Shown: positions 1 through 7,205 of the stretch, piece by piece
How the letters are laid out: each line of letters starts with the position of its first letter
Position numbering within the stretch: the first letter of the stretch is position 1
Assembly: GCA_035288405.1 (NCBI GenBank)
Contig: DATEAK010000163.1
Span: forward strand, 1 to 7,205
Direction: 5' to 3'
From: JACPSX01 sp035288405 [NCBI: bacterium]
Lineage (GTDB): Bacteria; JACPSX01
DNA length: 7,205 nucleotides
Position numbers and translations under genes: made by a program
Notes under the pieces: generated by a model
Told to the model about the DNA's origin: nothing
The model's database searches: none
The model's input: the letters and a program-made list of their open reading frames with translations, nothing else

Positions 1-179
1 GGAGAGTCGGATCCGTAGACCACCACCTTCCCCTCCCGTTTGGCTCCCTCGATCCAGGCCTGAGGAACCTGCAACTCCTTGGGAACCTCCGCGGCCCGGG
101 CAAGAGTCTGTGCCCCGATGAGCATTCCGAGCATCACCAGAAATCCCACGATCCCAAATCGCCAACCCAGGTGAGTCAT
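1..179 (-). CDS. Second ABC-type solute-binding protein, N-terminal 59 residues (3' end outside window)
   Basis: I translated this directly: ATG at 179-177, then 59 codons to the window edge without a stop. The start has a good Shine-Dalgarno sequence 8 bases upstream. Residues 1-30 form a signal peptide: MTHLGWR, a hydrophobic core FGIVGFLVMLGMLIGA (8-23), and a likely cleavage site after ARAA (27-30). The mature start, ELQVPQAWIEGAKREGKVVV (35-54), follows the same pattern as the preceding binding protein (VP..W...AK.EGK...Y). It is therefore a paralogue of the same ABC receptor class, placed in tandem. Only the first strand is visible, so ligand class, full length and intactness cannot be judged. 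It is probably the last visible gene of the permease/UbiD-2/binding-protein operon, which continues past the window. Confidence 0.75.
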   Translation of the reverse strand, partial: MTHLGWRFGIVGFLVMLGMLIGAQTLARAAEVPKELQVPQAWIEGAKREGKVVVYGSDS

Positions 180-215: not shown

Positions 216-1313
216 TTATAAACCGCCAATCGTCACCTTCCGCCACAGCTTCATACCCGGGGAATTATCCCCCCACTGCATCTCCATCTCCGCCGTCCGC
301 ACGGCCTGCTTCTTCCCCTTGATGCGCTGGTCCAGATCGGGAAAATTGAAGCTCTTCCCCTGGAGTTTCGGATGCACCGGATTGGCCTGGGTGACCTTGG
401 CATAGACCTCCTGCCCTTCCTCGCTCAAAATCCAATTCACGTAGAGCCTGGCGGCAAAGGGGTGGGCCGCCTTCTTCAAAATCACGATGTTCCCCAACCC
501 CACAGGCAACGGCTCGATGGCGAGCCAATCCACGGGCCCCTTGTTCTTGTAAACGTCAAAGGCGTTATATTCCGACACCGGAATCGCGATTTTGTATTCC
601 CCCGCGGCCAGGAACTTGACCGCGGCATCAGCTCCCTCGGTGCGGAACTGGGCTTTGTTTCGCGCAAAACCTTCCAGGAGCTTCGTGGCTCTCTCGGGAC
701 CCAGACCATGCCATATGGGATTGAACCAGACGCCGGCGGCAATACTGTTAAACCCCACCTGGCCGCTCCATTTAGGATCCAGCAGGTCTTCCCATGTTTT
801 CGGAAGATCCTTCTTGGACACCAGTTTCGTGTTGTAGGCCAAGCTGTAGTAGCGCTTGCGGAAAGCAATCGATATGGTGCCGTATTTCAGATCATCGGGA
901 TAGCTCTTCCAAACCGGGAGATCGGCCAACTCGCCCAGGGCCTGAGCATCCAGATAGTTCTTCAGTGCTCCCCCGAGTCCTGTGACGATGTCGGCGATGG
1001 GAGATCCACGCTGGGCGGTCAAAAGAACCTTCTGGTAGCGAACTTCGGTAGGTGCCTTCAAGTATTCCACCTTCACAAACGGGTACCTCTTATAAAACGG
1101 CTTGAGAATTTCCTCCTGGTCCCTGGGATCGTCCGTGGAATACAGGATAATCTTCCCTTCGACCTTGGCTTTGTCCAGCCAATCCTTGGGAACCGCCAGC
1201 TCGGCCTCCACTCCCTTCGCCCCGGCAGCGGCAACGACTTTCCCCGCCGCTGTCAGTAGCAACAAAGGAGCCATGACCGCCACCAGAATAGCAACCATCT
1301 TGTTTGTCTTCAT
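216..1313 (-). CDS. ABC transporter periplasmic solute-binding protein (extracellular solute-binding protein, FbpA/FutA-like fold)
   Basis: A 365-aa exported protein. The N-terminus has Lys residues, a hydrophobic core (MVAILVAVMAPLLLL, 6-20) and an Ala-rich region ending near residue 30, which looks like a Sec signal peptide. There is no lipobox Cys. The mature part opens with VPKDWLDKAKVEGKIILYST (41-60), the usual first strand of this binding-protein class, then GSPIADIV (103-110), YNTKLV..KDLPKTWEDLLDPKWSG (160-184) and HPFAARLYVNWILSEEGQ (284-301), all typical of the iron/sulfate/polyamine group. Ferric-binding relatives have two adjacent tyrosines in the 'GL.N.YY' region; here the matching stretch is AIPVSEYNAFDVY (243-255), with no pair. 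Iron is therefore doubtful and a carboxylate ligand is plausible, though unproven. The start overlaps the UbiD-2 stop (ATGA). The likely membrane partner is the permease two genes upstream. A related binding-protein gene follows after 36 bases. Confidence 0.9.
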   Translation of the reverse strand: MKTNKMVAILVAVMAPLLLLTAAGKVVAAAGAKGVEAELAVPKDWLDKAKVEGKIILYSTDDPRDQEEILKPFYKRYPFVKVEYLKAPTEVRYQKVLLTAQRGSPIADIVTGLGGALKNYLDAQALGELADLPVWKSYPDDLKYGTISIAFRKRYYSLAYNTKLVSKKDLPKTWEDLLDPKWSGQVGFNSIAAGVWFNPIWHGLGPERATKLLEGFARNKAQFRTEGADAAVKFLAAGEYKIAIPVSEYNAFDVYKNKGPVDWLAIEPLPVGLGNIVILKKAAHPFAARLYVNWILSEEGQEVYAKVTQANPVHPKLQGKSFNFPDLDQRIKGKKQAVRTAEMEMQWGDNSPGMKLWRKVTIGGL

Positions 1314-2773
1314 CTCGCTTCCTCCAAGCCTTTTCTCTCTTGACGGGCAAAAAGCGCAGAGAGTCTTTCTCCCCACTCTTCCTTCAACCGAGCTTTCAGA
1401 ACCGGACTGAGGCCGCTGACAGGAGGGAACTGGTCCTTCCATTCAAACGGACGGGTGGCATCAATGATCGCCCTGGAGTTAAATCCTTTGTGCTCCCTGG
1501 GGATGATCGGGTCCAGGGGCCCGCTCCAGCAGCGCCGCAAAATATCGATGGATTGTTCCGGATCACTGCGCGTGCACAGCGCCCAGATGAGATCGTCGCT
1601 GTCATAGATGTTCACGTCTTCATCGACCACGACGACATAGCGCCCCAGATAGGCTCCCGCCCGGCACTGGCTTGCGATGATGGCCGCTTGGCGGGCATGG
1701 CCGGGATAGCGTTGCTTGATGGCCACCACGATCAAAAATCGACTGGCCGCCGGGTGGCAGTTGACCGCAGTCACATCGGGCACGCCCGCCTCCTCGAGGG
1801 CGTTCCAGATCAAAGACGCGTGCATCAGCGTGTGGACCCCCTTGCCCACCGAAGGACGCATGGGAGGGGCTCCGCACAAGATGGGATTGTTGCGGAACAT
1901 AACGGATTGAACCCGCATGACCGGCTCAGGCCTTCGCGAACTGGCGTAGTAACCCGTCCATTCCCCGAAGGGCCCTTCGTCCATCCAATCCCCGGGAGCC
2001 ATCTCTCCTTCGAGGACGATCTCACTGCGGGCCGGGATGGGCAGGCCGGTCACAGGCCCGCGAATCACCTCAATAGGCTCACCGCGTACCGCCCCTGCAT
2101 ACTCATATTCCCCCATCTTGTACGGGACCGAGGTGGAAGCGGCCAGGAAAAGAAGCGGGTCCTGTCCGAGGCAAATCGCGACAGGGCAGGGTCGCTTCCT
2201 GTCAAAGTATTTCTGGCGCTGAATCCGGCCGTGCTTTCCGGGGGAAATGTAGACTCCTACGGACCGTTCATCTTGAAGCATCACCCGGTATGTTCCGAAG
2301 TTGATCCAGCCGTCTTCCGGATCCTGCGTGATCACCATGTGGGCCGTGCCCAGATAACGGCCGCCGTCCAGCTCGTGCCACCGGGGAGCCGGAAACTCAT
2401 ACAGGTTCACCTGACTACCCGTTCGGACGTTTTCCAAGATCGGCCCATCTCGAACTTCCAGGGGAGGCAGGGGCGCCAGGCGACGCACCTTGTGACGCCA
2501 CTGCTGCACGAATTCTATGGGGCTCAGGTGCGGATCAAGACCCGTTGTAAGCCCCAGCCTCTCCACGCTCGTAAACAAATTGGCGAGGACCCGGTGCCCG
2601 GCAGGATATTCTTTAATCCGGTCAAAGAGCAGGGCCGGAGGGGAAGAAGAGCCCGAGCAGACCAGTTCCACGATTCCCCCCATCTCCAGGTCCCAGTGAA
2701 CTCCTTCAATCGCCTCCAATTGGCCCAAAGCTTCCACTTCGGTCATCCAACTCCTGAGGTCCGAATACCCCAT
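1310..2773 (-). CDS. UbiD-family (prFMN-dependent) decarboxylase, UbiD-2
   Basis: A 487-aa member of the UbiD family, close to the usual length. The frame is open far upstream (to 3628), but that part overlaps the permease gene in another frame and resembles no family. The start is the ATG at 2773-2771, preceded by GGAAGGGAAGGA and followed by typical N-terminal sequence (MGYSDLRSWMTEVEALGQL). Residues matching the Fdc1 metal/prFMN and catalytic set: N158 and R163 in NFGTYR, H181 in SPGKHGR, E235 in EPIEVI, and E266 and E271 in EGPFGE, so it should be active. VVVVDEDVNIYDSDD (380-394) and AIIDATRPF (435-443) are further family blocks, the latter shared with UbiD-1. Outside these blocks the two UbiD proteins differ widely, so they are old paralogues and not a recent duplication. 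The TGA stop overlaps the next gene's ATG. The enzyme sits inside an ABC transporter operon; the substrate is unknown. Confidence 0.93.
   Translation of the reverse strand: MGYSDLRSWMTEVEALGQLEAIEGVHWDLEMGGIVELVCSGSSSPPALLFDRIKEYPAGHRVLANLFTSVERLGLTTGLDPHLSPIEFVQQWRHKVRRLAPLPPLEVRDGPILENVRTGSQVNLYEFPAPRWHELDGGRYLGTAHMVITQDPEDGWINFGTYRVMLQDERSVGVYISPGKHGRIQRQKYFDRKRPCPVAICLGQDPLLFLAASTSVPYKMGEYEYAGAVRGEPIEVIRGPVTGLPIPARSEIVLEGEMAPGDWMDEGPFGEWTGYYASSRRPEPVMRVQSVMFRNNPILCGAPPMRPSVGKGVHTLMHASLIWNALEEAGVPDVTAVNCHPAASRFLIVVAIKQRYPGHARQAAIIASQCRAGAYLGRYVVVVDEDVNIYDSDDLIWALCTRSDPEQSIDILRRCWSGPLDPIIPREHKGFNSRAIIDATRPFEWKDQFPPVSGLSPVLKARLKEEWGERLSALFARQERKGLEEAR
1319..1325 (-). promoter_or_regulatory. 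Shine-Dalgarno sequence of the coupled solute-binding protein gene
   Basis: On the minus strand this reads GGAGGAA. Its GGAGG core ends 7 bases before the ATG at 1313, inside the last codons of UbiD-2. With the ATGA stop/start overlap at 1313-1310 it indicates translational coupling. It also selects this start over the longer open frame that begins at 1442. Confidence 0.8.
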
Positions 2774-2823
2774 CCGTCCTTCCCTTCCGCAAGAGTCCCT
2801 CGTCGAGAGGTCTCCGCTCCCCT

Positions 2824-4563
2824 TTAACGCCGCCCTCCAACCTCCCGGAATCCCAGACGGCGCATGCCCATGGCCACCATGAAAAGGAATAAAATCATCA
2901 GGGTGCCGAGACCGCAAACGGCTCCCATTTGGCCATCGTCCCACAGCATCCAGACAAACACCGAAAGTACCTGGTTCTGAGACCCTTCGTAGAGCATCAA
3001 AGGCATACCCGTTATACGCACCGAAAGAAATAGGGACCAGATCCCGAGGCCCACAAAGGTGGGAATCAGCAAAGGGAAATGAATCTTGCGAAATGTCTCC
3101 AGCATAGTCGCCCCGCTCAGGTACGCCGCCTCTTCCAGCTCCCGGTGAATTTGCAGCAAAGAGGCGGTCATGGCCCGGGTCCCATAGGCCATGAAGCTCA
3201 TCATGAAACCCAGGGAAATCAACCACACCGTACCGTAGAGGGGAACATACGGTCTCAGTTCCAGAAAGATCCAGATGAGAGCCAAAGCCATAACGATTCC
3301 GGGAATGGAGCGGGGCAAAAAGGCCAGCATGTCCATCAACCTTCTTCCCCAGAACCGCGTGCGCACCAGCACCCAGGAGATGAGGAAGGAGAGGATAATC
3401 GTGCCCACGGCTGTGACGACGACCATGAGGCCGGTGTTCTTCAGCACCTTCCAGGTAGCACCGTAAATGACAATGGTGCGGTAGTTGTCCAGGGAAACAA
3501 GGGACAGACTCTTCACCGTCGGCAAAGTTGGAAAAGGAATCAGCGAGGTCCAAAAAAGCACGAGCAAGGGCAAGACCAGAGTCAGGAGGAGATACAAGAA
3601 AACACCACCGAGGGCCACATATTTCCATCGCCCCAGGTCCAATCGTCTGGGCTTGTAGTCCCGGCCGGTCACCACGGCAAACTTGTCGGCCCGGCGGATG
3701 GCGCGGGCATAGAGATAGACGCCGATGGCCGCCATGACGACATAGGCCACCGCGAGAGCGTTAGCCTGGCCGTAGTCGGGGGTCTCTAACCCCTGGGTGA
3801 CCGCGTAAATCTTCGTGCTGAACACGTAGATCCGGGCGGGGAGACCCAGCACGCCCGGAATCTCAAAGGTCTCTAAAACCGTAATCGTCTCGTAGATGAG
3901 GACCGCCACGATGCCCGAAGATAACACCCGCAGCGTGATCCGGTGCAGCCGGGAAAAAGGCCCCGCCCCGGAGACGGCGGCGGCTTCCTCCAGGGCCGGA
4001 TCCATGTTGCGGAACAGGGGAACCATGAGGAGAAAGGAGGTCGGGACGACGCGAAGGGCCTCCAAAACGATCATTCCCGCCAGAGTATACGTGTTCAGCG
4101 GAGCGGAGCTTAGATTGAAGAGATCCATCAACCAGCGATTGATATATCCCATGCGCGGGCTAAACAGCAGAACCCAGGCAATGGCATGCAAAACTCCGGG
4201 GATGGCCAGAGTCAAGGGGATCGCAGCAAAAGCGATTCCCCTGTAGGGCATGTTGGTGCGCTCCACAAGCCACGCCATTACCAGGGCCAGACCAAGGCCC
4301 AAGAATACGGCTCCCGCCGTCAGGATGAGAGTGTTGCTCATGATAACGAGGGTGGATTTCTTCAGGTAAGCCCGGGCGTAATTTTGCAGCCCCGGATTCT
4401 TGAACTCTCCGAGGGCGGTCGAGTTGCTGAAACTGCCCAGGATCAGCATCAGCAGCGGGGCCAAGGTAAACGCCAACAGAAACAGCAGGAGAAGCGTGCA
4501 CCATGGATGGCTGATTCTAAAACCGCGGCGATGGCTTAGACTTACGGTTCCCGCCAGCTCCAT
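2824..4563 (-). CDS. ABC transporter permease, fused two-domain, ferric-iron (FbpB) type
   Basis: A 579-aa inner-membrane protein holding two permease domains in tandem, as in FbpB-type iron/thiamine permeases, so one chain can form the whole channel. About twelve hydrophobic segments are visible, roughly six in residues 20-290 and six in 315-570, joined by a charged linker (about 288-313, RRADKF...RDYKPRRLDL). Each half has the EAA loop that docks on the ATPase: EEAAAVSGA at 192-200 with R..LRVL after it, and EEAAYLSGA at 477-485 followed by FRKIHFPLLIP. The ATG at 4563 is preceded by GGAGGAGGG ending 11 bases upstream; an AAGGA directly at the start is too close to serve. The gene ends in TAA, 50 bases before UbiD-2. 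Database names would call it an iron permease, but the UbiD gene between it and the binding protein hints at an organic-acid substrate. The partner ATPase is not in the window. Confidence 0.92.
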   Translation of the reverse strand: MELAGTVSLSHRRGFRISHPWCTLLLLFLLAFTLAPLLMLILGSFSNSTALGEFKNPGLQNYARAYLKKSTLVIMSNTLILTAGAVFLGLGLALVMAWLVERTNMPYRGIAFAAIPLTLAIPGVLHAIAWVLLFSPRMGYINRWLMDLFNLSSAPLNTYTLAGMIVLEALRVVPTSFLLMVPLFRNMDPALEEAAAVSGAGPFSRLHRITLRVLSSGIVAVLIYETITVLETFEIPGVLGLPARIYVFSTKIYAVTQGLETPDYGQANALAVAYVVMAAIGVYLYARAIRRADKFAVVTGRDYKPRRLDLGRWKYVALGGVFLYLLLTLVLPLLVLFWTSLIPFPTLPTVKSLSLVSLDNYRTIVIYGATWKVLKNTGLMVVVTAVGTIILSFLISWVLVRTRFWGRRLMDMLAFLPRSIPGIVMALALIWIFLELRPYVPLYGTVWLISLGFMMSFMAYGTRAMTASLLQIHRELEEAAYLSGATMLETFRKIHFPLLIPTFVGLGIWSLFLSVRITGMPLMLYEGSQNQVLSVFVWMLWDDGQMGAVCGLGTLMILFLFMVAMGMRRLGFREVGGRR

Positions 4564-4796
4564 ATCCTTCTCAACCCTCCTCCAGATAAAAAGAACCCTG
4601 GCGTTAGAGAGTCACAGTCTCAACCGCAAGGCACTCGGATGGAACTGCTTATTGAGCTTAAAGCATGAGGTTTACAGTTACACCTCTATAGCATAATCGA
4701 CCTTGCGGAAACAACCTTCTTTTTCAGCCACCGGCACAAGCCCTCGGATCCCCGATCACCGGCTCAGGGAACACCGCAACCGCAGTTGACTTCGGC
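4564..4796. other. Intergenic gap between the two modules; no gene seen
   Basis: These 233 bases separate the UbiD-1 stop from the permease start, while every other gap in the window is 50 bases or less. Only very short ORFs occur (for example ATG-CTA-TAG). Just after the UbiD-1 stop, on the minus strand, imperfect pairing is possible (GAGCC with GGCTT, TCGG with CCGA around a GGAT loop, about 4740-4770). It is followed by an A-run, not a T-run, so it is not a convincing intrinsic terminator. A T-rich stretch (TTCTTTTTAT) near 4587-4596 has no strong stem before it. The gap could hold the promoter of the permease operon. Confidence 0.6.
4685..4714 (-). promoter_or_regulatory. Weak candidate promoter for the ABC/UbiD-2 operon
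   Basis: The minus strand reads TTGTTT (4714-4709), 18 bases, then TATAGA (4690-4685). The latter is preceded by TG one base upstream, as in an extended -10 element. It matches the sigma-70 consensus only partly (3 of 6 and 4 of 6). Its position, about 120 bases before the permease ATG in the window's only sizeable gap, is its main support. Confidence 0.22.
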
Positions 4797-6392
4797 CTAC
4801 AGCTTCTTTCTCTCTTTCTCCTCCAGCTTTGTTCCGGTCCGGTAGTATTCCCCCCGAATCGCCAGGTCTGCTTCTTCTTCCTGCTCCTTGGTCCAATAGC
4901 CCAAAGGATAGCCATGCCACGGCACCTTCGGATTTAACTTCTCCCATCCCTCCTCTTCCCAAATCTTCCTGGCTCGTTCCATATATTCTTGGCGAGGAAG
5001 AGCCACAGGAGGGTAATCGAATTTCCGCGTCGCATCGATGAGAGCGGCTGAGGAACCCGAGGGAGAAGGAAAGGCCCGTTCCGAATCCGGAGCGTCGGGA
5101 GGAGCAGCGGAAACATCCAAACCTGCCGGCCTCCCCTCCACAATGCGGATGTCCCTGTGGGGCTGGACCCGAAACGACATGGCCCAGTTCACCGAGTCGG
5201 GATCTCCCGGATCGATGTCTTCGTCCACGGCAATGATGAACTTCACGGTTGGGGGATTGAAGCTATAGGCGGCATGGAGCGCCTGCCAGGCGTCGCCGGG
5301 ACCATATTTCTTCATCTGGATCACGGCATAGGGACCACTTCCGGAAGTTTGGTGGAATGCCACTCTGAGAACACCGGCAATATTGCAGTCATGCCTTAGC
5401 AATTTGAACCAGGCGGCTTCCCGGCCGATGCCCCGCATCACACTGGATTCGCTCGGGGGAAACTGACTGATAAAGGCGCTGTATATGGCATCCCGCCGGT
5501 GGGTGATACAGGTCACGTTGAAGTACGGGCTCATTGTGTTCATGCCCATGTAACCCGTGTACTCCCCAAAAGGGGCTTCCCTTTCCAGAGAATCCGTGGG
5601 GATTTCACCCTCGAAGACGATCTCCGCCGTGGCAGGTACCTCGAGATCCACGGTTTTGCAGCGCACCAGTTCGACGGGCTCGCCGGCAATTCCTCCCGCC
5701 ACCGCATACTCGTCTGTGCCGTAGGCGGGCTTCCCAGCCCCCACGTAGATAATATTGGGGCTGGCGCCAATCACAACGGCTGCCTGCAGGGGAATCCCCT
5801 TGGCCCTGCACTTCTTCCAATGAGTGAACAGGTGAGAGCCGGAAAAGACGCCGGTGCGAGTCGCGCTTTTAATCATGGCCCGGTAATTTCCCAAATTTCT
5901 CTCGCCGGTCTCCGGATCCTTGGTAACCCAGTTCGCGTTGCTCAAATAGGGAGCGTTGTCGAGCCCCGGGGTGGAGACGGGAACAGGAAATTCCCCGATA
6001 CCCCCGTGGTTCAGGAGCCCCGCTCCCAAGTGAACTTCCTCGTGAACGGGCCCCGTCTCCAATAAAATAGGTTTCACGGGATGCATCTGAGCATCGTTCC
6101 ATTTGGCCGCGATTTCTTCGGGAGAACACATCATCCCCAACGCATAGATATTCCTTGAGGCGGCATAGCCCCCAACCAGGACGGGCATGGAGTACTTGTT
6201 TCCCCTGCCGTCCGTGACGTTCTTAAAGAGGAAGGCTTTGCGCGCCGATTCCGGCAGGTTTCCCCGGAATTGCCAGCGCACCACGGGCATCAGCTCCAGG
6301 TCCTTGTTGATGGGACGCTGAACGGTTCGCAAGAGACCACCTTCTTCAAGTTTCTGCAAGAATTCCCTCAGATCGCGATAATATTTCCTCAT
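4797..6392 (-). CDS. UbiD-family (prFMN-dependent) decarboxylase, UbiD-1
   Basis: A 531-aa cytoplasmic enzyme of the UbiD family, which (de)carboxylates aromatic or unsaturated acids with prenylated FMN. I chose the ATG at 6392-6390 because GAGGAAGGG lies just before it and family homology begins there (MRKYYRDLREFLQKLEE). An in-frame ATG at 6506 would add 38 non-family residues and overlap the TAXI gene. Compared with Aspergillus Fdc1, the metal/cofactor and catalytic residues appear conserved: N166 and R171 in NLGNYR (N168, R173), H187 in SGSHLFTH (H191), E241 in EPVELV (E233), and E272 and E277 in EAPFGE (E277, E282). The C-terminal FIIAVDEDIDPGD segment (385-397) is also family-typical. 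The second motif position is Ala where many members have Gly. A Pro/Ser/Ala-rich stretch at 421-449 is longer than in UbiD-2, and the tail is Lys/Glu-rich. Substrate and reaction direction cannot be read from the sequence. prFMN must come from a UbiX encoded elsewhere. Confidence 0.93.
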   Translation of the reverse strand: MRKYYRDLREFLQKLEEGGLLRTVQRPINKDLELMPVVRWQFRGNLPESARKAFLFKNVTDGRGNKYSMPVLVGGYAASRNIYALGMMCSPEEIAAKWNDAQMHPVKPILLETGPVHEEVHLGAGLLNHGGIGEFPVPVSTPGLDNAPYLSNANWVTKDPETGERNLGNYRAMIKSATRTGVFSGSHLFTHWKKCRAKGIPLQAAVVIGASPNIIYVGAGKPAYGTDEYAVAGGIAGEPVELVRCKTVDLEVPATAEIVFEGEIPTDSLEREAPFGEYTGYMGMNTMSPYFNVTCITHRRDAIYSAFISQFPPSESSVMRGIGREAAWFKLLRHDCNIAGVLRVAFHQTSGSGPYAVIQMKKYGPGDAWQALHAAYSFNPPTVKFIIAVDEDIDPGDPDSVNWAMSFRVQPHRDIRIVEGRPAGLDVSAAPPDAPDSERAFPSPSGSSAALIDATRKFDYPPVALPRQEYMERARKIWEEEGWEKLNPKVPWHGYPLGYWTKEQEEEADLAIRGEYYRTGTKLEEKERKKL

Positions 6393-6424: not shown

Positions 6425-7205
6425 CTAAATTTCCCCACCCAGGAGGTTGTTTTCCCGGTAATAGGAGCGGGCACCCGGATGAAGGGGAACCGGCATGGTC
6501 TTCCACAACTCTTCGGGGCGAATCGGATAATGAAGGGGGCTCTCCATTACCGGAATGTGGCGGTATTTGACCTCGAAATCATCTCGATCCTCCACAATGA
6601 CCCGTGCCATCAGGCGGGCCACATCGTCCGGCATGTCGCTGCGGACCAGAACCAGCCACTGGCTCCAGTCCAGAGTCGGCACGGGGCGTGCAAGTCCCCG
6701 GAATTCCCCTGCATCGATGACGGCTCTTTGATATCCGTAGTCTTGGTTGAGACTCTGGAGTTGCGGCTCATCAATCTCCAGAAACCGCATCTGCCTGCGA
6801 TCCGTGAACCAATGCCAAGTCATGATCGCCTCGTAAAAAATGGCATCGACTTCCCCGGAGACCACCAGTTTGGGAGCCTTGGGAGGACGTTCGATCTCAA
6901 ACCATTCTCCACCCCAGCTCCGGATGTCGTCCCATTGGATGCCGTAAGCATTGAGGATGCGCTCGGCAACAAATCCTATGTGATTAATCCCATCATTGAG
7001 CCCGGTCACGATCCTGATGGGAGGTTTTTTCTCCCGAAGATCATGAAACGAGCGGATCCCATAGCGCTCGGCAAAGTCCTCGGCGATGGCCAGAACCATG
7101 CGGTCCCGGTGGGGCATGGCCGCGATGGCCCGCAGGTCGGGGCAGGGCCGATCGAACATCCCCCGGCCTTCCAAGGCCTGCGCCGCAGTAACAATCGGGG
7201 TCGTG
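6425..7205 (-). CDS. TAXI-family TRAP transporter solute-binding protein, C-terminal part (5' end outside window)
   Basis: The open frame runs from the window edge (first full codon at 7204) to a TAG at 6427-6425, giving 259 visible residues. There is no stop before the edge. A TTG at 7174 could act as a start, but the frame continues upstream in recognisable family sequence (TTPIVTAAQALEGRG), so the true start and signal peptide lie outside. TAXI proteins are periplasmic receptors that hand small organic solutes to TRAP membrane subunits. Seen here: a DLREKK...IRIVTGLNDG segment (about 55-72) in the place of the family's 'DLkGKrv.vG' loop, a ...ILNAYGI..DDI helix (83-94), a SGEVDAIF segment (116-123), and the C-terminal signature LHPGARSYYREN (241-252). 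No TRAP permease is visible; it may lie upstream or elsewhere. The gene is followed after 32 bases by a UbiD-family gene, so the two are probably co-transcribed. The family is fairly certain; the ligand is unknown. Confidence 0.82.
   Translation of the reverse strand, partial: TTPIVTAAQALEGRGMFDRPCPDLRAIAAMPHRDRMVLAIAEDFAERYGIRSFHDLREKKPPIRIVTGLNDGINHIGFVAERILNAYGIQWDDIRSWGGEWFEIERPPKAPKLVVSGEVDAIFYEAIMTWHWFTDRRQMRFLEIDEPQLQSLNQDYGYQRAVIDAGEFRGLARPVPTLDWSQWLVLVRSDMPDDVARLMARVIVEDRDDFEVKYRHIPVMESPLHYPIRPEELWKTMPVPLHPGARSYYRENNLLGGEI

What the first reader, a model, noticed from the sequence alone, without database searches (positions are those of the whole stretch)
216..4563. UbiD decarboxylase embedded in, and translationally coupled to, an ABC uptake operon
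The order is permease, UbiD-2, binding protein, with 50 bases and then a 4-base ATGA overlap. Such tight coupling of a catabolic enzyme to a periplasmic receptor suggests that UbiD-2 acts on what the transporter brings in. This would be an uptake-plus-decarboxylation module in which an 'iron-type' ABC system carries an aromatic or unsaturated acid. The gene order and overlap are seen directly; the shared substrate is inferred.
Basis: partly seen in the sequence, partly recalled or inferred. Interest (0 to 1): 0.6.

Follow-up and report, generated by a model that had tools for sequence, protein, structure and literature searches.

The report
Decarboxylase gene inside an uptake operon
A bacterial gene for a carbon-dioxide-removing enzyme sits tightly packed inside an operon for a nutrient importer, a pairing that recurs in some other bacteria and probably lets the cell take in an organic (likely aromatic) acid and start to break it down.

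Summary
On the minus strand an FbpB/PhnU2-like two-domain ABC permease (4563-2824) is followed after 50 nt by a UbiD decarboxylase (2773-1310), whose stop overlaps the start of a binding protein (1313-216) by ATGA. A second binding protein follows; a TAXI binding protein and another UbiD precede. The pairing is not unique: in Desulfobacterota MAGs 12 of 21 related permeases lie within 4 kb of a UbiD (3.1 expected; 13 further neighbourhoods outside that count had none), in Chloroflexota 7 of 33 (1.07 expected); Binatia are at chance, Pseudomonadota 0 of 9. It is loose, however: of the 20 best UbiD-2 relatives in 34 searched genomes, 2 stand beside this permease type, and none of the 10 best in the genome-contig scan. 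Other relatives sit beside other importers, one in an Aromatoleum plasmid region laid out like the known o-phthalate cluster. The binding protein has Tyr-Asn where ferric HitA has Tyr-Tyr, so 'iron-type' is only a family label. Uptake followed by decarboxylation of an organic, probably aromatic, acid is the best reading; the substrate is not shown. New variant of a known kind.

The parts
6425..7204 (-). TAXI-type (TRAP-associated) solute-binding protein, 5' end cut by the window
   Evidence: PF16868 69.4 bits over cut-off 27; TIGR02122 75.2 bits, below its cut-off 84.35
4797..6392 (-). UbiD-1, 531 aa, starts 32 nt after the TAXI gene
   Evidence: PF01977, PF20696, PF20695 over cut-off; TIGR00148 244.3 bits, just under its cut-off 244.85; catalytic-type motifs NLGNYR and EAPFGEY
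4564..4796 (.). 233-nt gap between UbiD-1 and the permease; no terminator-like or promoter-like site found in it
   Evidence: consensus scan only, so whether one or two transcripts is open
2824..4563 (-). FbpB/PhnU2-like two-domain ABC permease, 579 aa
   Evidence: PF00528 in two stretches; best NCBIfam TIGR03262 PhnU2 146 bits, far below its cut-off 593.25
1310..2773 (-). UbiD-2, prFMN-dependent decarboxylase family, 487 aa
   Evidence: all three UbiD Pfam domains; best solved relative 7pda 396 bits; its group is sister of PpcB in the tree
1310..1313 (-). ATGA: stop of UbiD-2 overlaps start of the binding protein
216..1313 (-). ABC solute-binding protein of the Fbp/AfuA/PhnS2 kind, 365 aa, signal-peptide-like N-terminus (by eye)
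3..179 (-). start of a second, similar binding protein (59 aa seen), 3' end cut
   Evidence: similar by eye to the N-terminal part of the first binding protein

Best explanation
This is an uptake-plus-decarboxylation module. A periplasmic binding protein of the Fbp/AfuA kind (perhaps two, in tandem) captures an organic anion, most likely an aromatic or other unsaturated carboxylic acid; the two-domain permease, driven by an ATPase encoded beyond the window's end or elsewhere, carries it in; and UbiD-2 (with prFMN made by a UbiX elsewhere) removes a carboxylate as an early catabolic step. UbiD-1 with its own TAXI binding protein next door may handle a related acid or a second carboxylate. Shown: the genes, their order and overlap, catalytic-type residues in both UbiDs, recurrence of the pairing in other genomes, loss of half of the ferric tyrosine pair. 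Inferred: the shared substrate, its aromatic nature, the direction of the reaction, and the place of the ATPase and UbiX.
For: Domain content. UbiD-2 keeps N158, R163, H181, E222, E266 and E271 (their roles are recalled from Fdc1). Pairing with the same permease family: G004 10 of 14 permeases within 4 kb of a UbiD, against 1 of 60 response-regulator matches and 0 of 6 LivHM-type matches (Fisher P 1.4e-8 against the regulators); Desulfobacterota 12 of 21 (3.08 expected) and Chloroflexota 7 of 33 (1.07 expected). G656 has a single UbiD match at E 1e-20 or better, and it follows SBP-permease-ATPase (ATPase by eye). Three separate layouts in G210: L178 permease-SBP-UbiD-2(47%)-UbiD-1(51%)-SBP-permease-Rieske, the first binding-protein stop 16 nt before the UbiD-2 start; L241 permease-ATPase(by eye)-UbiD-2 (57%); L252 UbiD-2(55%)-UbiD-SBP-SBP with a permease after them. 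UbiD-2 relatives beside other importers: an ABC set in EbN1 plasmid 2, between two UbiX-UbiD pairs and near two CoA transferases and TAXI; UbiX, a binding protein and a 591-aa permease-like protein in an Acidimicrobiaceae MAG (by eye); MFS, UbiX, MetA-type porin and a gentisate pathway in Burkholderia. Rieske, Gfo/Idh and cupin proteins near other cases. Binding protein: HitA's Tyr-Tyr lies opposite Tyr-Asn; the profile of 12 such proteins scores best with the PLP binder P5PA, and the P5PA paper (PMC8427247; passages) reports Fbp-like proteins binding organic phosphates and an ATPase shared between systems. A review (PMC13040137; passages) lists ABC and TAXI-TRAP among phthalate importers and UbiD-like decarboxylases in the anaerobic pathways.
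Against: No substrate is known for either protein; of the NCBIfam cut-offs only the generic TIGR00148 is reached by UbiD-2. None of the 43 loci found by UbiD-2 alone has a match to this permease in the DNA held, and of the 20 best UbiD-2 relatives only 2, both in G210, do (two more, L244 and L258, have a related binding protein close by). In Binatia the linkage is within chance (3 of 15, 1.38 expected) and in Pseudomonadota 0 of 9; 13 further Desulfobacterota neighbourhoods scanned, outside the count, have no UbiD. The chance model places genes at random and ignores catabolic islands; the response-regulator control, in one MAG, meets this only in part. A protein series annotated as iron-binding (7f6, 119-122 bits) ranks between P5PA and AfuA in the profile search, and leads the single-sequence search. 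Substrate clues come from other genomes at about 26-51% identity. No ATPase and no UbiX are in the window.
Confidence: 0.58

Rival explanations
1. Catabolic-island neighbours without a shared substrate: genomes of this kind carry many UbiD and many transporter genes in aromatic-acid islands, and tight packing reflects co-regulation or gene shuffling, with the transporter bringing in a different compound.
For: G004 holds 93 UbiD matches and G001 38; gene order differs among the parallels; 18 of the 20 best UbiD-2 relatives lack this permease nearby; Binatia linkage is at chance.
Against: Permeases are linked to UbiD far more often than response regulators in the same MAG; genomes with 1-3 UbiD matches still place one beside this transporter (G656, G569); translational overlap in the window and 16 nt spacing in L178.
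Confidence: 0.29
2. True ferric-iron importer placed beside iron-dependent catabolic genes.
For: The best single-sequence PDB matches are annotated iron-binding (7f6 series, then HitA); plasmid relatives of the permease are annotated iron permease.
Against: HitA's tyrosine pair lies opposite Tyr-Asn in the window protein, and by eye none of 12 aligned related proteins has Tyr-Tyr there; the profile scores highest against the PLP binder P5PA; AfuA carried the iron name before it was shown to bind sugar phosphates (PMC8427247, passages).
Confidence: 0.06
3. Organophosphate or phosphonate importer: the UbiD-2 group is the sister of phenylphosphate carboxylase subunit beta (PpcB), and UbiD-2 acts on, or carboxylates, a phosphorylated aromatic brought in by a PhnS2/P5PA-like system.
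For: PpcB is the sister of the UbiD-2 group (99/97) in the tree; TIGR02724 315 bits, below its cut-off 468.95; binding protein and permease have their best NCBIfam matches in 2-aminoethylphosphonate families, well below cut-off.
Against: No small Ppc subunits or phenylphosphate-synthase-like genes among the window's genes; neighbours of UbiD-2 relatives point to carboxylates.
Confidence: 0.07

Closest known systems
Anaerobic o-phthalate clusters of denitrifiers (ubiX, UbiD-like phthaloyl-CoA decarboxylase, CoA transferases, TAXI-TRAP)
   Same: UbiD-family decarboxylase genes packed with a dedicated importer (review PMC13040137, passages). A region of EbN1 plasmid 2 with this layout also holds an ABC set followed by a UbiD 47% identical to UbiD-2
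   Different: Solved phthaloyl-CoA decarboxylase is a distant match of both window UbiDs (65.6 and 77.9 bits), and so are the EbN1 UbiDs beside UbiX (26-27%); the EbN1 ABC set is of another type; no CoA transferase in the window. That the EbN1 stretch is the published cluster is my inference from its layout
AfuABC / P5PAB organophosphate ABC importers (FbpA-like binding proteins)
   Same: Binding protein of the same superfamily, easily misnamed iron-binding; P5PAB works with another system's ATPase (PMC8427247, passages)
   Different: Low similarity (single-sequence E 2e-9 and 6e-9); ligand unknown here; no UbiD is mentioned in the passages seen
Phenylphosphate carboxylase (PpcA/PpcB)
   Same: UbiD-2 is nearest to PpcB among the named families tested
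   Different: Below the equivalog cut-off; the small subunits and PEP-utilising-type genes seen beside PpcB in Azoarcus KH32C are absent from the window
UbiD family decarboxylase with solved structure 7pda
   Same: 396 bits over nearly the full length
   Different: No paper in the held library contains the code 7PDA, so its substrate gives no guide

Membership tests
UbiD (prFMN-dependent) decarboxylase family | Three UbiD domains (PF20695, PF01977, PF20696) | tested here: met
   Both UbiD-1 and UbiD-2 over all three cut-offs
UbiD (prFMN-dependent) decarboxylase family | Catalytic Arg and two Glu (R-E-E) and the metal-site residues; roles recalled from Fdc1 | tested here: met
   UbiD-2 N158, R163, H181, E222, E266, E271; UbiD-1 carries NLGNYR and EAPFGEY
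UbiD (prFMN-dependent) decarboxylase family | prFMN binding and decarboxylase activity | not testable with these tools
   needs an assay
Phenylphosphate carboxylase beta (TIGR02724) | Score over equivalog cut-off 468.95 | tested here: not met
   315 bits
Fbp/PhnSTU-type ABC importer | Fused two-domain permease plus class-2 binding protein | tested here: met
   two PF00528 stretches; SBP_bac_8/6/1 over cut-off
Fbp/PhnSTU-type ABC importer | PotA/FbpC-type ATPase in the operon | tested here: inconclusive
   none in the window, which ends inside the second binding protein; present in relatives L155 and, by eye, L203, L204 and L241; none called beside the module in L134
Ferric-iron-binding FbpA/HitA | Two adjacent tyrosines that hold the iron (recalled) | tested here: not met
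   HitA Tyr-Tyr aligned to window Tyr-Asn
2-aminoethylphosphonate importer PhnS2/PhnU2 | Scores over equivalog cut-offs | tested here: not met
   49.5 of 392.75 and 146 of 593.25 bits
o-Phthalate (phthaloyl-CoA decarboxylase) cluster | UbiD close to phthaloyl-CoA decarboxylase, with a CoA transferase or ligase | tested here: not met
   65.6 and 77.9 bits to the solved enzyme; no CoA transferase or ligase among the window's genes

The most novel reading that the evidence does not exclude
A class of carboxylate importers not described in the papers I found, within the 'iron-type' ABC family, has come together repeatedly with UbiD enzymes of two separate clades (UbiD-1 and UbiD-2), so that uptake and one or two decarboxylations of aromatic polycarboxylates form one coupled unit. 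The two clades occur together in the window, in G210 (L178), G004 (L145), two Binatia and a Deltaproteobacteria MAG (L001, L003, L004, without this permease but with a Pht5-like gene between) and, more loosely, Chloroflexota (L204).
Probability: 0.2. Interest if true: 0.6.

Novelty: new variant of a known kind. Interest (0 to 1): 0.4.

Why it matters
Many transporters called iron importers and many UbiD enzymes have no known substrate. A recurrent, tightly packed pair gives two handles on one unknown compound: a ligand screen of the binding protein directly proposes the UbiD substrate. It also suggests that, near UbiD genes, the automatic label iron ABC transporter may often be wrong.

Tried and rejected
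Own-genome search: no genome is held for the window, so the true downstream gene (ATPase?) and UbiX could not be sought. Structure prediction of the binding protein with three sequences gave pLDDT 47; not used, and no fold search was made. Plasmid megablast of the whole window: no match. Reading the kinship of UbiD-2 to PpcB as phenylphosphate carboxylase: rejected, below cut-off. UbiD-1 as phthaloyl-CoA decarboxylase: rejected, distant. Binatia as a further case of linkage: rejected, within chance. Promoter/terminator scan: 2 promoter-like sites against 2.6 in shuffles and 10 terminator-like against 7.3, none in the 233-nt gap. Paper searches: among the titles and abstract starts listed I saw none that describes a UbiD beside an Fbp-type ABC system, and no held paper contains 'Fe3+ ABC transporter' together with UbiD and carboxylase; the longer lists were capped (for example 20 of 108, 20 of 36, 15 of 167), and most subscription papers are not held. 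Passages of PMC8269228 and PMC10570749 were read and not used.

Counting choices. One search examined 13 G004 permeases (the truncated C217 copy is only), 12 of 18 G001 and 3 of 16 G002 matches, 33 of the 38 Chloroflexota rows (five not fetched), all 9 Pseudomonadota rows, and in Desulfobacterota only genomes whose UbiD number I had (G004, G210, G300, G191, G238, G143); 13 further neighbourhoods were scanned and had no UbiD, and G088 was not fetched. Searches scored only the best few candidates of each genome. Dropped before counting: the second permeases at the far ends of L134 (same gene as in L135), L161 and L196 (cut copies; the one in L196 lies within 4 kb of a UbiD). The second permease of L178 was counted. 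The two G210 cases found later (L241, L252) are not. UbiD numbers in the expectation come, which used different E-value limits. The 20 loci are the first 20 rows less one neighbouring copy that falls inside the same stretch; the genomes were chosen for holding the permease. The tree was sampled partly by permease linkage, so its mix of contexts is not an unbiased count. Gene calls come from a home-made codon-score script; starts are rough. Some stretches are short, e.g. L002, L010, L017, L149, L179, L184, L255, so absence there is weak.
Full report
What is there. The genes of note are all on the minus strand. In order of transcription: a TAXI-type binding protein (7204-6425, cut), UbiD-1 (6392-4797, 32 nt later), a 233-nt gap, a two-domain ABC permease (4563-2824), 50 nt, UbiD-2 (2773-1310), an ATGA overlap, a class-2 binding protein (1313-216), 36 nt, and the first 59 codons of a second, similar binding protein (179-3). 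Purine-rich, ribosome-binding-like stretches precede the starts.

What the proteins are. Both UbiDs pass all three UbiD Pfam cut-offs. UbiD-2 passes only the generic NCBIfam model TIGR00148 (UbiD-1 falls about half a bit short of it) and is otherwise nearest to phenylphosphate carboxylase beta, below cut-off. In a 55-row tree its group is sister to PpcB with support 99/97, and its nearest row is a Binatia sequence, 55% identical; UbiD-1 falls in a separate group of 12 rows with support 100/100. Residues that correspond, by recalled Fdc1 numbering, to the metal site and to the Arg-Glu-Glu centre are present. The permease and binding protein belong to the Fbp/PhnSTU kind but miss every NCBIfam naming cut-off.

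Iron or not. A single-sequence search puts proteins annotated as iron-binding first. An alignment with HitA sets its tyrosine pair opposite Tyr-Asn, and by eye none of 12 aligned binding proteins has Tyr-Tyr there. A profile of those 12 scores 124 bits with P5PA, a pyridoxal-phosphate binder, 119-122 with the iron-annotated 7f6 series, 118.5 with AfuA (4r72/4r73) and 107.5 with HitA. In the P5PA paper (PMC8427247; abstract start, passages) AfuA had carried the ferric name before it was shown to bind hexose phosphates, and P5PAB needed an ATPase from another system. So the iron label says little here, and a missing ATPase gene is not a strong objection.

Does the pairing recur? I took relatives of the permease from four groups and looked for UbiD within 4 kb. 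Against a random-placement expectation: Desulfobacterota 12 of 21 (3.08), Chloroflexota 7 of 33 (1.07), Binatia 3 of 15 (1.38), Pseudomonadota 0 of 9 (0.01) (what was left out is listed under Tried and rejected, including 13 Desulfobacterota neighbourhoods without UbiD). In G004, a Desulfobacterales MAG with 93 UbiD matches at E 1e-20, 10 of 14 permeases lie within 4 kb of a UbiD, against 1 of 60 response-regulator matches and 0 of 6 LivHM-type matches. The best parallels: L178 (G210) reads permease-SBP-UbiD-2-UbiD-1-SBP-permease-Rieske, the first binding-protein stop 16 nt before UbiD-2; L241 (G210) permease-ATPase-UbiD-2 and L252 (G210) UbiD-2-UbiD-SBP-SBP with a permease after them; L134 (G004) cupin-UbiD-2-SBP-permease-cupin; L203 and L204 (Chloroflexota) SBP-permease-ATPase-UbiD-2. 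G656, home of L203, has no other UbiD match at E 1e-20.

What speaks against a fixed partnership. In the 43 loci found through UbiD-2 itself no match to this permease appears; L005 and L007 show a related binding protein. Of 20 stretches around the best UbiD-2 relatives, 2 hold the permease beside the UbiD, both in G210; two more (L244, L258) have a related binding protein close by. Of 60 permease neighbourhoods, 9 hold a UbiD at all. Two Streptomyces plasmid relatives of UbiD-2 stand with UbiX and no transporter directly beside them. The exact order permease-UbiD-SBP was not seen again in the loci I annotated. The association is therefore recurrent but loose: parts of the same kinds are brought together in different orders, mostly in genomes rich in UbiD.

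Clues to the substrate, all indirect. Beside UbiD-2 relatives lie: in EbN1 plasmid 2, an ABC set of another type between two UbiX-UbiD pairs, near two CoA transferases and TAXI, a layout like the o-phthalate clusters of a review (PMC13040137, passages); in Burkholderia, a gentisate pathway with porin, UbiX and an MFS carrier; in Binatia L155, a cupin and a Gfo/Idh enzyme in line with it and a Rieske protein on the other strand; in L001, L003 and L004, a gene between UbiD-1 and UbiD-2; of the 15 listed plasmid relatives of the L001 copy one is annotated pht5, 4,5-dihydroxyphthalate decarboxylase, and most of the other annotated ones as ABC substrate-binding protein. The best plasmid relative of the permease, in Neorhizobium, has the order flavin-dependent oxidoreductase-permease-SBP-SBP-ATPase: the window's order with UbiD-2 placed after the permease, which suggests an ATPase beyond the window's end. 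These point to aromatic carboxylates, but at low to middling identity and in other organisms.

Verdict. Observation confirmed; interpretation partly supported. The likeliest mechanism is import of an organic, probably aromatic, acid by an Fbp-family ABC system followed by UbiD decarboxylation (0.58). Dedicated importers beside UbiD enzymes are known in phthalate degraders; the Fbp-type variant, embedded with one or two UbiDs, was not met in the paper searches made (listings, abstract starts and a few passages seen).

Noticed in passing
window 7204-6392 (minus strand): A TAXI-type binding protein lies 32 nt before UbiD-1, so each UbiD in the window has a binding protein of a different transporter family beside it; in L168 (G001) a TAXI match also directly precedes a UbiD-2 relative.
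   Followed up: partly
G004 (L007's genome): 93 UbiD matches at E 1e-20 or better in a 4.8-Mb MAG (99 at the looser limit), an unusually large number; G210, G527, G001, G002, G419, G444 and G591 carry 31-46 each. Chimeric binning was not excluded.
   Followed up: no
L136_15004, L143_8087, L142_587, L143_4853 (G004): Some UbiD-1-clade paralogues have Ser or Asn for the catalytic Arg and Thr or Asp for the first catalytic Glu, so they may not be ordinary decarboxylases.
   Followed up: no
L001 5320-9437, L003, L004: In two Binatia and one Deltaproteobacteria MAG, UbiD-1, a Pht5-like protein and UbiD-2 stand in a row, followed by a GST-like gene (by eye).
   Followed up: partly
L134, L141, L155: Cupin proteins stand directly beside UbiD genes in several of the transporter-linked loci (L134 and L155 by Pfam; L141 by eye).
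   Followed up: no
L252 (G210) 5482-5685: A permease-like scrap of 71 bits lies between a UbiD and two tandem binding proteins, perhaps a remnant or a chance frame.
   Followed up: no
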